DNA of 64,000 nucleotides from Corynebacterium urealyticum DSM 7109 (GTDB taxonomy: Bacteria; Actinomycetota; Actinomycetes; Mycobacteriales; Mycobacteriaceae), in assembly GCF_000069945.1 (NCBI RefSeq), contig NC_010545.1, positions 1,922,001 to 1,986,000 on the forward strand, read 5' to 3'. Below, one piece after another: positions 57,989-61,495 of the stretch. The notes under the pieces are model-generated. The model was not told the origin of the DNA and searched no databases. It saw only the letters and a program-made list of their open reading frames with translations. The first letter of the stretch is position 1. Each line of letters opens with the position of its first letter. The position numbers and the translations under genes were made by a program.

Positions 57989-58471
57989 ATGGCTCAGAGC
58001 ATCGAAGTCACCATCGAGATCCCGAAGGGTTCCCGCAACAAGTACGAGATCGACGAGGAGACCGGCAAGGTTCACCTGGACCGCTACCTCTTCACCCCGA
58101 TGGCGTACCCGGCTGACTACGGCTTCATCGACAACACCCTCGGCGAGGACGGCGACCCGCTGGACGCGCTGGTCATCCTGCCGGAGCCGCTGTTCCCAGG
58201 CGTGGTTGTCAAGGCCCGCCCGGTTGGTGTGTTCAAGATGACCGACGAGGCCGGTGGCGACGACAAGCTGCTCTGCGTGCTCGACGACCCGCGCTTCGAC
58301 CAGTACCAGGACGTGGACGACATCTCCCAGTTCACGAAGGACGAGATCGAGCACTTCTTCGTGCACTACAAGGACCTCGAGCCGGGCAAGGAGGCCCGCG
58401 GCGAGGGCTGGGGCACCGCTGCTGACGCGGAGAAGATCCTGGCCGACGCCATCGAGCGCGCCAAGAAGTAG
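57989..58471 (+). CDS. ppa: Inorganic pyrophosphatase
   Basis: Ppa hydrolyses pyrophosphate to pull biosynthetic reactions forward. The family I protein (160 residues) has [39 protein letters not shown] with the metal-binding Asp cluster, and KYDLEPGK-like [14 protein letters not shown] at the end. I chose ATG at 57989 ([11 protein letters not shown]), like the C. glutamicum start; ATG at 57977 is also in frame. Followed by a terminator at 58504. Confidence 0.96.
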
Positions 58472-58503
58472 AAGGCTTTAGGCTTTTAGGCTTCTTGGGG
58501 CTC

Positions 58504-58538
58504 AGCGCCCGCTCCCCTGCTGTGGGGTGGGCGCTTTT
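58504..58538 (+). terminator. Terminator after ppa
   Basis: AGCGCCC pairs with GGGCGCT, with an inner CCCC/GGGG stem, and is followed by TTT. Confidence 0.85.
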
Positions 58539-58656
58539 GCATGTGTGGGCGGAAATGAAATTCTGTGGCGAGCTCGGGACATTTCACGAACGAGCCCCTG
58601 AACAACTGAGGCTTAAAATACATTAGTTTTCAACTCAGTGAACGGAGCGACCCAAT

Positions 58657-59424
58657 TTGTCTACGTCGTGGAAGAACTTATCGCGCCATCAGGCTCACTG
58701 CATATGGGAAGCACTACCTGTGGCGAGAAGGGAAACCTACCTCAGGATCGCAGAGCAACATGGCGCTTGTGACACCCAAGCGATACTGCTGGCGATGCAG
58801 CTCTACGTCTGGAATGGCGATCTCGCAGCAGCGGTCGACCGCGCGACAGGAGAGGTAGAGGTCTATCTACGCAACTTCATTGACAAGAGCTTTTCTCAAT
58901 GGAACGAGAGCTCAGTCGCTGGCACGCATGAATGGCTGACCCAGCCTGCCTCGCCATTAACAAAACTCGTGAACACCAGTAGAGGGTCTATTTTGAGCCT
59001 TGCCCACACCGATACAGTTCGCGGGAAGCCCACCCATCATGATTACGTAGCTGGCCTCTCATTTGGAACGTGGGTACACTTGCTCCCCCGACCACATGCG
59101 GGGTCAAAGAACGCCCACGTTCGACTCTGGAGAGAAGCCCTCGAGCCAAAGCTTGGCACATCGGATCGCGTCAATTTCCAACGTCAGGCGATGCGCATCA
59201 AGGATATGAGAAATCGCGCAACCCATAGGCGACCCCTAGTTAAAGACATCAAGAGCCTAAGCCAGGTACACCGCGACTCAGTCGAGATCTTGCGGGCCAT
59301 CGACCATGACTTAGGCGAATGGTTCCGAATTCAAAAATGGATTCCGGTAGTCCTCAACGATTCCGGGTTAAACGACAAAATGTGTGTCCGGATTCGTCGA
59401 TTTGTTTGGGTTGATCAGGGGTAA
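58657..59424 (+). CDS. Abi-like HEPN-domain protein, C-terminus replaced by IS sequence
   Basis: A 255-residue helical protein related to the Abi family (abortive-infection type, PF07751-like). Family landmarks in order are LYVWNGDLAAAVDRATGEVE, EVYLRNFIDKSF, DYVAGLSFGTWVHLL, LWREALEPKL and MRNRATHRRP. R185-N-R-A-T-H190 is an R-X4-H HEPN motif, the ribonuclease active-site signature. The start is TTG at 58657 with GGAG upstream. Codon use is clearly more AT-rich than its neighbours, a sign of transfer. An IS1249-type element inserted after codon Ser236. The native end would be PLTQIER and a stop at 60778-60780; now 19 IS-encoded residues follow. The catalytic part is intact, so it may still work as a phage-defence or toxin-like RNase. 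That role is inferred. Confidence 0.8.
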   Translation: MSTSWKNLSRHQAHCIWEALPVARRETYLRIAEQHGACDTQAILLAMQLYVWNGDLAAAVDRATGEVEVYLRNFIDKSFSQWNESSVAGTHEWLTQPASPLTKLVNTSRGSILSLAHTDTVRGKPTHHDYVAGLSFGTWVHLLPRPHAGSKNAHVRLWREALEPKLGTSDRVNFQRQAMRIKDMRNRATHRRPLVKDIKSLSQVHRDSVEILRAIDHDLGEWFRIQKWIPVVLNDSGLNDKMCVRIRRFVWVDQG

Positions 59425-60748
59425 TCCGGAAAGTATATGCTCCTAGAGCATATATCCGCCCCGGGGCGGCGAAATACCGGGTGTGACAGCAGCGTGTGGT
59501 AGGAGCTGGTGTTGGCATTGATCAATGCCGAAGAACAGACCACGCTGCCACTGCGGCGGCGAGATGAAACGCAACGGTAAGACCTCCGCCAACCGCACCC
59601 GGTGGCGGTGCAAAATCTGCGGCGCTTCCACCACCAAGCAGCGCCCCGATATCACCAACTCCGCAGCCTTCGCAGCATTTATCACCCACCTCACAACCGG
59701 TGCGAGCTTGGAAACCGCTGCCGCCGAAGCAGGGTGTCATCCGCGTACCCTGCAACGCCGGTTTGAACACTTCTGGCTAGTTGATGTCCCCGATCCCACG
59801 ATCGGCCACGAAGGCCGGGTCTACGACCAGGTCTTTCTTGACGGCACCTACACCGCCGGCGGATGCTTGATTGTTGCCGCCACCTTGGATCACGTCATCG
59901 CTTGGCACTGGTGCACACGTGAGACCACCCGCGACTACCAAAGGCTCCTCGAACGTATCCCCGCGCCCCTGATCGCTGTCATCGACGGCGGCCAAGGCGC
60001 TGCCAGCGCAATCAAGACATGCTGGCCTGCAACGAAAGTGCAGCGCTGCCTCGTTCACGCCCAACGCGTGGTGCGTCGGCACACCACCTCACGCCCCCGC
60101 ACCGATGCAGGACGAGCGATTTACCAGCTCGCGCTCAACCTCACGAAGATCACCGCTCTTGACGAGGCAGCCGAGTGGGGTGCACAACTGCACGAATACG
60201 GCACTATCTACCGCGACTGGATGAACCAGAAAACGTTCACAACCGACCCAGCGACACGGCAACGCACCTGGTCATGGACGCATGAACGCACCCGCAAGGC
60301 CTACAACAGCCTCAACCACCTATGGCGCAACCAGCTGTTATTTGTCTATCTCGACCCACCTGACGGTGTCCTCGATGTCAGCCGGATCAAATCCACCACC
60401 AACAGCCTGGAAGGCGGCATCAACGCCCAGTTGAAACTGCTTGCCCGCACCCACCGCGGCAGATCCGGTGAACACCAACGCCGGATGCTGGATTGGTGGC
60501 TGTACCTGCAAACGGAACTGCCTGACGACCCCGTTGAGATCGCCAGGCAGTCCAACTGGGGCCAGGACCAACTCGCCAAAGTATCCACCCTGACCCACAA
60601 CGAGAACCAAGCCGACCACGAAACCGGACGACCAGCCCTCTACGACAACGCTATCGACACCGACTACACACACTCAATCGGCATCCAAAAAGGCCACATC
60701 TAACCCCGCGACACGCCGGAGTCAGACACACATTTTGTCGTTTAACCC
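59365..60748 (+). mobile_element. IS1249-type insertion sequence (IS256 family), copy 2, 1384 bp
   Basis: Inverted repeats of 26 bp at 59365-59390 and 60723-60748 match at 25 of 26 positions. They start GGGTTAAACGACA and contain TGTGTGTC. The 8-bp sequence ACGATTCC flanks both ends (59357-59364 and 60749-60756), a perfect target duplication. One intact transposase gene lies within. The element differs in sequence from copy 1 at 1834-3239, so the two are separate arrivals rather than one duplicated copy. It sits inside the last codons of the Abi-like gene. Confidence 0.97.
59525..60703 (+). CDS. IS1249-type transposase
   Basis: A 392-residue transposase starting MPKNRPRCHCGGEMKRNG, with a zinc-ribbon-like set ending in CKICGAS. 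The catalytic acids are in VFLDGTYTAGGC (Asp), AVIDGGQGAAS (Asp) and TNSLEGGIN (Glu). The C-terminal segment RQSNWGQDQLAKVSTLTHNE and final IGIQKGHI match the corresponding parts of copy 1. The frame is complete and shows no damage, so the element may still be active. Confidence 0.95.
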   Translation: MPKNRPRCHCGGEMKRNGKTSANRTRWRCKICGASTTKQRPDITNSAAFAAFITHLTTGASLETAAAEAGCHPRTLQRRFEHFWLVDVPDPTIGHEGRVYDQVFLDGTYTAGGCLIVAATLDHVIAWHWCTRETTRDYQRLLERIPAPLIAVIDGGQGAASAIKTCWPATKVQRCLVHAQRVVRRHTTSRPRTDAGRAIYQLALNLTKITALDEAAEWGAQLHEYGTIYRDWMNQKTFTTDPATRQRTWSWTHERTRKAYNSLNHLWRNQLLFVYLDPPDGVLDVSRIKSTTNSLEGGINAQLKLLARTHRGRSGEHQRRMLDWWLYLQTELPDDPVEIARQSNWGQDQLAKVSTLTHNENQADHETGRPALYDNAIDTDYTHSIGIQKGHI

Positions 60749-60779
60749 ACGATTCCCCGTTAACGCAGATAGAAAGATA

Positions 60780-60802
60780 GCCCCCAGCTTCATGCTGGGG
60801 GC
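60780..60802. terminator. Hairpin at the original end of the Abi-like gene
   Basis: The perfect 9-bp stem GCCCCCAGC / GCTGGGGGC with a TTCAT loop begins at the last base of the displaced Abi stop codon. It was probably that gene's terminator, now cut off by the insertion. The rest of the gap to 60984 shows no gene. Confidence 0.6.
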
Positions 60803-60984
60803 CAGAGCTTATTTGCCTTTTGGGGCTTGATGTCTCACAGCGTAGCACGCCGGGGCACAGAATGTCATCCGACATGACACTTTCCAGCCCCGACCCCGGA
60901 AACGTGAAGATACGCCTCACACTGGGTCACATCCCCGCCCCGCAGCCGTGGGGTAGCCGGGGTGTGGCTAGTAGCATGGCGGGC

Positions 60985-61311
60985 ATGAGTGACTTTGAAT
61001 CCATGAGAGCAGAAGACGTCCCAGAGGACGTCCAGTTGGTGGACGTCCGCGAGGCCAATGAGTTCGCGGAGTGGCACGCCAAGGGCGCCGAGAACCTCCC
61101 GCTGTCCGAGCTGCAGCTGCGCTACGGCGAGCTGGACCTGGACCAGGACCTGTACATCATCTGCCTGTCGGGTGGCCGCTCGGCGAAGGCCTGCCAGTGG
61201 CTGGAGCTCAACGGAATTGACGCGATCAACGTGTCCAATGGCTCCATCGGCTGGCGAGATGCCGGCCGCACGATCATCGTCAACGGCGAGGAGACCACGA
61301 ACCCGGCCTAA
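60985..61311 (+). CDS. Rhodanese-like sulphurtransferase
   Basis: A single-domain rhodanese (108 residues), cytoplasmic, that can carry a persulphide sulphur. VQLVDVREANEFAEWHAKGA is the CH2A-like motif, and the active-site loop is IICLSGGRSAKACQW with the catalytic Cys. I chose ATG at 60985 (MSDFESMRAEDV); ATG at 60976 is possible. The open frame upstream to 60820 is not coding. Substrate unknown. Confidence 0.9.
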   Translation: MSDFESMRAEDVPEDVQLVDVREANEFAEWHAKGAENLPLSELQLRYGELDLDQDLYIICLSGGRSAKACQWLELNGIDAINVSNGSIGWRDAGRTIIVNGEETTNPA

Positions 61312-61340
61312 GCGCTGGGACGGCGTACGCTCCCCCCATT

Positions 61341-61384
61341 ACTCCCGCTGCGGGTGGCTTTCAGCCACCGGTGGCGGGAGTTTC
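61341..61384 (+). terminator. Terminator after the rhodanese gene
   Basis: Nested stems ACTCCCGC / GCGGGAGT and GGTGGCT / AGCCACC with a TTC loop, followed by TTTCGTT. Confidence 0.82.
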
Positions 61385-61495
61385 GTTATCCAAAATTCAC
61401 TTTAGATTTCCCGCCAAAAGCTTCTTTTACACTGCTGGCGAGGCTAACGTCGAAGGGACAAGGCCCTGATCGACAGAGCTAAAGGTTGTATCACC

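What the first reader, a model, noticed from the sequence alone, without database searches (positions are those of the whole stretch)
58657..60780. Abi-like HEPN gene whose last seven codons were swapped for IS-encoded residues
Removing the IS1249 element with one copy of its 8-bp duplication restores a frame ending PLTQIER-stop at 60778-60780. The insertion adds 19 new residues instead of destroying the protein. The R-X4-H motif (R185-H190) and the Abi landmarks are upstream and intact. The gene is AT-richer than its neighbours and sits alone between housekeeping genes. It may be a solitary anti-phage or toxin-like RNase altered, not killed, by the element; loss of its terminator hairpin would also change its expression. 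It is not a close match to any named defence system I can recall.
Basis: partly seen in the sequence, partly recalled or inferred. Interest (0 to 1): 0.75.

Follow-up and report, generated by a model that had tools for sequence, protein, structure and literature searches.

The report
Abi toxin gene with RNA partner
A jumping element sits between a bacterial RNA-cutting (Abi-type) gene and what looks like its own small RNA gene on the opposite strand, a partner missed at first that probably keeps the enzyme in check and makes this a new variant of a known toxin-antitoxin kind.

Summary
In detail: IS1249 (1384 bp, 8-bp duplication) replaces the last codons of a 255-aa ORF by 19 IS-encoded residues. 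R185 and H190 are kept in 117 of 117 aligned rows that reach them. The protein belongs to the Abi_2/HEPN superfamily, nearest the PD-T4-5 profile. But it is not solitary, and the "terminator hairpin" is not its terminator: it is the 3' end of a ~62-nt RNA gene on the opposite strand (60835 to 60774), with promoter-like boxes, a 5' hairpin and a U-tailed stem. The IS lies outside it. Covariation of the main stem and G-U versus A-C counts support RNA and strand. In 242 Corynebacterium genomes all 8 with this toxin type carry the RNA; 11 carry the RNA without the toxin, two of them with both flanks of a relative's site but no gene. Best reading: a HEPN ribonuclease toxin neutralised by an opposite-strand RNA, a variant of AbiF/AbiFr. 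Antitoxin activity is inferred. Rfam's abiF model does not match it.

The parts
58657..59424 (+). abi-like HEPN ORF as it stands, 255 aa; native part 58657-59364
   Evidence: PADLOC PD-T4-5 7.4e-9; family alignments
59209..59226 (+). HEPN catalytic motif RNRATH (R185-H190)
   Evidence: R and H in 117 of 117 rows that reach them, N in 116
59365..59424 (+). 19 IS-encoded codons and stop that replace the native C-terminal tail
59365..60748 (+). IS1249 element, 1384 bp, with matching 24-nt ends
59525..60703 (+). IS1249 transposase
   Evidence: NF033544 528.6 bits
59357..59364 (+). target-site duplication, left copy
60749..60756 (+). target-site duplication, right copy
60757..60780 (+). displaced last seven codons and stop of the abi gene (overlap the 3' end of the RNA gene)
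   Evidence: read
60774..60835 (-). W-type RNA gene (core, about 62 nt): 5' hairpin, linker AAAUAAGCUCU, terminator hairpin
   Evidence: R1 84.5 bits, R2 70.8 bits, fold z -3.7. R1 and R2 were built from alignments that include this sequence, so these scores are not independent
60778..60804 (-). terminator stem-loop of the RNA gene, followed by UCUUUCUAUC
   Evidence: found by the consensus scan
60839..60844 (-). -10-like box TACGCT of the RNA gene
60863..60868 (-). -35-like box ATGACA, 18-nt spacer
   Evidence: 8 of 12 matches; 3% of 200 shuffles reach it

Best explanation
The locus is a two-part module: an Abi_2-superfamily (PD-T4-5-like) HEPN ribonuclease and a small structured RNA encoded convergently on the other strand, transcribed from its own promoter and ended by its own hairpin terminator. 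Most likely the RNA binds the protein and holds it inactive, as AbiFr/RCd22 does for AbiF, and phage infection or stress upsets the balance so that the enzyme cuts cellular RNA and halts growth. IS1249 went in between the last codons and the RNA gene. It swapped the tail of the toxin for 19 foreign residues and moved the two genes 1.4 kb apart, but left the active site and the RNA gene untouched. So an RNA acting in trans should still neutralise the toxin, while any coupling through convergent transcription is broken. Shown here: anatomy, conservation, covariation of the main stem, strand bias, association, toxin loss with RNA retention. Inferred: transcription of the RNA, binding, neutralisation, RNase activity, trigger.
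For: R185/H190 kept in 117 of 117 rows. Same RNA beside the close relatives' stop codon. Covariation in three RNA types: cells changed on both sides 27 (W), 27 (B), 29 (A) against shuffled means 10.5, 7.9, 6.9, none of 500 shuffles as high; slid controls 0-8. Strand: on the strand opposite to abi G-U:A-C is 15:3 (W), 18:4 (B), 29:1 (A) (W counted on the other strand and turned round); a TAnnnT box at a type-specific distance in 14 of 15 W, 16 of 16 B, 11 of 13 A; minus-strand terminator in the window. RNA search of 242 genomes: 22 W hits of at least 41 bits in 20 genomes. All 8 genomes with a W-type toxin (E<=1e-30, found by protein) carry the RNA; 11 of the 20 have the RNA and no such toxin hit. 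L157 and L159 keep both flanks of the L010 site without the gene, L158 one flank. Type B: of 30 fetched R3 loci 14 are the model's own training loci; of the other 16, 8 have an Abi hit within 1.5 kb, all 8 on the opposite strand. RNA type follows the protein tree, 3 changes, the minimum. Precedent: C. difficile AbiF neutralised by RCd22 (PMC12373285; abstract, sections 6, 7 and part 1 of 2 of section 13 read).
Against: No expression, binding or toxicity data. RF03085 (abiF RNA) does not match the window region or any of 38 loci scanned (E limits 5, 1, 3) nor G000. In W only the main stem covaries: the three pairs of the 5' hairpin show no change on both sides, and two of five measures are ordinary (119 and 241 of 500 shuffles as high). 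Folding energy does not tell the strand for W (9 of 14, one tie), and the U-tail contrast is weak for A (0.54 against 0.43). Promoter boxes beat their own shuffles at 5% in only 7 of 15 W, 4 of 13 A and 3 of 16 B, and the stricter promoter scan found none in 58400-61400. A generic two-hairpin detector did not separate Abi loci from control genes (42 of 103 against 19 of 62). RNAs that persist without a toxin could have another job. The window RNA departs from the GNRA loop (CCAAAA) and may be decaying.
Confidence: 0.65

Rival explanations
1. The RNA is an activator or guide of the HEPN nuclease (Cas13-like role) rather than an antitoxin.
For: Cas13 is reported to descend from AbiF-type proteins (PMC12737573, passages read); RNA type follows the protein clade.
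Against: No spacer-like variable region; the linker is among the most conserved parts. The RNA is kept in 11 genomes without a W-type toxin hit, the asymmetry expected of an antitoxin.
Confidence: 0.15
2. Type I-like antisense control: the RNA pairs with abi mRNA.
For: Opposite strand; in the window the RNA core overlaps the displaced last codons (60774-60780).
Against: At L010-L012 the RNA core begins right after the stop codon, and in type B it lies upstream of the start, so overlap with the ORF is slight or absent. Stems change with compensation while pairing is kept, which favours structure.
Confidence: 0.08
3. The hairpin is only the transcription terminator of abi.
For: In relatives L010-L012 it follows the stop codon directly.
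Against: No T-run after the stem on the abi strand; terminator consensus on the minus strand only. Conserved 5' hairpin and linker. Occurs at 11 of 20 fetched loci where no abi gene is found within 1.5 kb, the window's own locus not counted among them.
Confidence: 0.04
4. The IS insertion inactivated the toxin (tail swap, lost conserved proline, or altered expression), so the ORF is a dying gene beside a relic RNA.
For: Tail proline nearly invariant in A1; window RNA lost the GNRA loop; RNA without toxin is common among W-type loci.
Against: ORF open, catalytic motif and all residues invariant in A1 intact; IS 99.7% identical to another copy, so recent.
Confidence: 0.3

Closest known systems
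AbiF-AbiFr / RCd22 type III-like toxin-antitoxin (Abi_2 plus abiF RNA RF03085)
   Same: HEPN Abi protein with conserved RN-x3-H; adjacent small structured RNA with its own promoter-like boxes and a hairpin terminator; the only natural Abi protein among the PDB hits is 8VZ6, the AbiF-RNA complex, with the motif aligned (E 0.051, below four DARPin artefacts).
   Different: Here the RNA is on the opposite strand, downstream and convergent (W, A) or upstream and divergent (B); no RF03085 match; protein about 240 aa and nearest PD-T4-5, not AbiD. In the same genus the RF03085 hits at L149 (above cut-off) and L148 (below cut-off) lie on the same strand as and upstream of an Abi_2 protein; L148 scores PADLOC AbiD 2.7e-52.
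PD-T4-5 (single-gene abortive-infection system of E. coli, 'distant relative of AbiF/D')
   Same: Profile match of the window protein (7.4e-9) and of six relatives tested.
   Different: No RNA partner is mentioned in the passages seen of PMC9519451; whether the E. coli locus has one was not tested here.
Type III TA such as ToxIN
   Same: Protein toxin with RNA partner (recalled).
   Different: No tandem-repeat RNA, RNA not in the toxin transcript, HEPN motif (ToxIN features recalled).
IS1249
   Same: Transposase over cut-off, 8-bp duplication, inverted ends.
   Different: Nothing unusual.

Membership tests
Abi_2 (PF07751) | Score above gathering cut-off | tested here: not met
   Window protein 13 bits, cut-off 25.6; but 48 of 69 aligned members match at E<=0.1, best 9.8e-11
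HEPN ribonuclease | Conserved R-(polar)-x3-H motif | tested here: met
   R and H 117 of 117, N 116 of 117 among 124 rows, 7 rows too short; 69 of 69 in A4, rows chosen by me
HEPN ribonuclease | HEPN fold | not testable with these tools
   Structure prediction switched off; only a weak profile match to 8VZ6
PD-T4-5 | Profile match over most of the domain | tested here: met
   E 7.4e-9, residues 47-213; the library gives no curated cut-off
PD-T4-5 | Anti-phage activity | not testable with these tools
   No experiment
AbiF-abiF RNA module | RF03085 RNA | tested here: not met
   No hit in window 58300-61100 at E<=5 nor in G000 (stricter filters); L144 and L149 score above the cut-off in the same search tool, L145 below
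AbiF-abiF RNA module | RNA upstream on the same strand, co-transcribed (RCd22) | tested here: not met
   Opposite strand, downstream
AbiF-abiF RNA module | RNA binds and neutralises the protein | not testable with these tools
   Only the loss asymmetry points to it
IS1249 | NF033544 transposase, 8-bp duplication, inverted ends | tested here: met

The most novel reading that the evidence does not exclude
PD-T4-5-like HEPN proteins of several phyla are RNA-neutralised toxins whose antitoxin is an independently transcribed RNA gene on the opposite strand. RNA and protein diversify as cognate pairs, and the RNA survives as an orphan, protective gene after the toxin is lost, a toxin-antitoxin architecture distinct from ToxIN and from same-strand AbiF-AbiFr.
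Probability: 0.45. Interest if true: 0.72.

Novelty: new variant of a known kind. Interest (0 to 1): 0.6.

Why it matters
AbiF-type HEPN proteins are reported as the source of Cas13 (PMC12737573, passages), so how their RNA partners are arranged and evolve bears on the origin of RNA-guided immunity. A family with a separate opposite-strand RNA, co-diversifying types (four family members in one genome) and orphan RNAs gives ready material to test RNA antitoxin specificity and anti-addiction. It could also explain how PD-T4-5-like 'single-gene' defence proteins are carried safely. In the listings of the paper searches (one search showed 25 of 1,975 papers) I saw no title or abstract describing such an RNA for this family. 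The Cell 2025 AbiF-Cas13 paper and the 2017 RNA-motif paper, looked up by DOIs from memory, were not held, so prior description there cannot be excluded.

Tried and rejected
Terminator reading of the hairpin: rejected on strand evidence. Rfam on the window and on 41 fetched loci: above the curators' cut-offs only tRNAs, one guanidine-III riboswitch and abiF at L144 and L149. First reading of the RNA as co-directional with abi (models R1 and R2 were built on that strand) was dropped after the G-U/A-C, U-tail and -10 evidence; R1 and R2 still serve for detection. Generic two-hairpin detector: non-discriminating, 42 of 103 Abi loci against 19 of 62 control ORFs. Folding-energy strand test: A 13 of 13, B 13 of 16, W 9 of 14 with one tie. 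Strict promoter scan: none found in 58400-61400. Profile search of the PDB: four DARPins rank above 8VZ6 and look like repeat artefacts. First genome-contig scan with the single protein found no relative; the alignment query found 46 loci. Phage collection: no match; plasmids: 64 records, all under 60% identity. Rows dropped before counts: A3 used 15 W RNAs (L014, L015, L157, L158 and the same loci under other ids left out as identical or near-identical; second copies in G022 and G200 not used); A5 dropped L052 and L092 of the 16; A6 dropped L027 of 13; L025 and L060 were not used. A4 took 69 rows that I chose; one search repeats the motif count on 124 rows (12 identical ones dropped; 7 do not reach the motif; L091 has D for N). 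One search translated minus-strand loci on the wrong strand and was replaced. The IS-free state in other strains of the species was not checked: the genome collections hold one genome per species.

Full report
Observation. The window lies in a 2,369,219-base single-contig genome; I recall this size as that of Corynebacterium urealyticum DSM 7109, and only confirms that such a strain is in the taxonomy. The ORF, the IS1249 element, the 8-bp duplication, the 19 IS-encoded residues and the R185-H190 motif are all as described. The gene is poorer in G+C than the five neighbours measured (54.2% against 62.4-67.0%).

What the protein is. Alone, the window protein scores below the Abi_2 cut-off, but PADLOC's PD-T4-5 profile matches at 7.4e-9. 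A search of 201 Corynebacterium genomes, its own included, found family matches in 87 (E<=0.001), among them three more places in the same genome (L039, L040, L041). In an alignment of 69 sequences that I chose, window included, from Corynebacterium, Bifidobacterium, other Actinomycetota, Bacteroidota and Pseudomonadota (names; the rest from unnamed Corynebacterium genomes), E68, R72, W93, W139, R185, N186 and H190 never vary. On 124 rows without that choice, R185 and H190 hold in 117 of 117 that reach them and N186 in 116; 7 rows are truncated before the motif. Abi_2 matches 48 of the 69 at E<=0.1. In the PDB the only natural Abi protein hit is 8VZ6 (E 0.051, below four DARPins), with the motif aligned. 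PD-T4-5 is described in PMC9519451 as a plasmid-borne distant relative of AbiF/D that acts by abortive infection (passages).

The tail. In close relatives the protein ends a few residues after a WIP-x2-L-like stretch, with a nearly invariant proline. The insertion keeps the stretch and replaces the proline and what follows. Whether that matters is open.

The hidden partner. Directly after the stop codon of the close relatives stands a conserved element; in the window it stands on the far side of the IS. A covariance model of seven copies (R1), run on 64 sources, also found it at L098 and at L022, neither in its training set (80.8 and 29.5 bits). Aligned (A3, 15 copies), the main stem shows 27 cells changed on both sides against 10.5 in shuffles (0 of 500 as high) and 0-5 in slid controls. 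The 5' hairpin pairs show no such change, and two of the five measures are no better than shuffles.

Strand. Read on the strand opposite to abi, the element becomes a normal small-RNA gene: a TAnnnT that starts 15-20 nt before the 5' hairpin in 15 of 16 rows, a hairpin whose loop is GNRA in 12 of the 15 A3 copies (by eye; exceptions the window, L013, L022), a conserved AAAUAGGCUCU-like linker, then a strong hairpin with a U-rich tail. Wobble cells are G-U rather than A-C on that strand: 15:3 for W (turned round from the count on the other strand), 18:4 for B, 29:1 for A. TAnnnT boxes sit at a type-specific distance in 14 of 15 W, 16 of 16 B and 11 of 13 A, but the full -35/-10 score beats its own shuffles at 5% in only 7, 3 and 4 of them. 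The consensus scan independently reports a minus-strand terminator at 60804-60778 and no promoter. Folding energy is a weaker witness: A 13 of 13, B 13 of 16, W 9 of 14 with one tie.

Generality. Two further RNA types show the same plan. Type A lies downstream and convergent, B upstream and divergent, with 29 and 27 cells changed on both sides against 6.9 and 7.9 in shuffles. RNA type follows protein clade with the minimum of 3 changes on a 45-protein tree; labels were given by eye from the flanks, the C group has weak support, and near-copies help such clustering. By eye, U-tailed G+C stems on the opposite strand also stand upstream of relatives in other phyla, with TAnnTTTG boxes in the three Bacteroidota loci L134, L141 and L142 (17 loci printed); this was not tested statistically.

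Association and loss. In all 242 held Corynebacterium genomes R2 gives 22 hits of at least 41 bits in 20 genomes; the next score is 33. W-type toxins at E<=1e-30, found by protein search, are in 8 genomes (a ninth hit, G141, belongs to the C group) and all 8 carry the RNA. Of the 20 RNA loci fetched, 7 have an intact toxin and 1 a frameshifted one within 1.5 kb, 1 is the window, and 11 have none; the second hits in G022 and G200 were not fetched. The genomes of those 11 show no W-type toxin at E<=1e-30 anywhere. Reservations: G050 keeps a fragment, G050 and G222 are the same locus, and the G200 hit lies 58 bases from a contig end. L157 and L159 keep both flanks of the L010 site, L158 one; none has the gene (L157 keeps only its first and last codons), and all three keep the RNA. 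For type B, R3 gave 33 hits in 32 genomes, of which 30 were fetched. Fourteen of these are R3's own training loci and have an Abi gene by choice; of the other 16, 8 have an Abi hit within 1.5 kb, all on the opposite strand, 4 of them only fragments or split pieces, and 8 have none. Toxin lost and RNA kept, never the reverse among the W-type toxins, is what an antitoxin predicts.

Mechanism. C. difficile AbiF is a growth-inhibiting HEPN protein neutralised by the RNA RCd22 through direct binding, in cis and in trans (PMC12373285; abstract, sections 6 and 7 and part 1 of section 13 read). I infer the same logic here, with a separately transcribed opposite-strand RNA. In the window IS1249 ends at 60748, 25 bases from the RNA core, and leaves its promoter-like boxes and terminator alone. 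Neutralisation in trans should therefore persist, while readthrough from abi into the antisense of the RNA gene is now interrupted by 1.4 kb of IS. That last point is inference.

Known and new. The RNA is not RF03085: none in the window region at E<=5 and none in G000. RF03085 itself occurs in the genus: 5 of 201 genomes at E<=0.001, 1 above the cut-off. At L149 (above) and L148 (below the cut-off) it lies upstream on the same strand as an Abi_2 protein. So the genus holds both the same-strand AbiF arrangement and this opposite-strand PD-T4-5-like one. I file the finding as a new variant of a known kind.

Noticed in passing
L039 (G000:C1:1985375-1988031, overlapping and running beyond the right end of the window), L040, L041: Three further PD-T4-5-like HEPN genes in the same genome; L039 has an A-type RNA, L040 a B-type RNA (R3 48.7 bits at G000:C1:2027809-2027872; L040 was in R3's training set), L041 an upstream stem of another type.
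   Followed up: partly
L157, L158, L159, L160, L161, L163, L164, L166, L167: Orphan W-type RNAs without an Abi gene within 1.5 kb, still with a GNRA loop, a terminator and mostly a -10 box.
   Followed up: partly
L148 and L149: Abi_2 proteins (L148 also AbiD by PADLOC; the L149 match lacks the start of the domain) with an RF03085 hit upstream on the same strand; at L149 the abiF RNA's outer stem is itself followed by a T-run.
   Followed up: partly
L144 (G149): An RF03085 hit over cut-off (44.1 bits) with no Abi-like ORF of 150 aa or more listed in the 3-kb locus; the same genome's other hit with an Abi_2 gene (L149) lies about 4 kb away.
   Followed up: no
L134, L141, L142: Bacteroidota relatives with an opposite-strand U-tailed stem behind a TAnnTTTG promoter-like box.
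   Followed up: no
L010:2671-2741: A guanidine-III riboswitch (50.4 bits) on the minus strand downstream of the abi-RNA pair.
   Followed up: no
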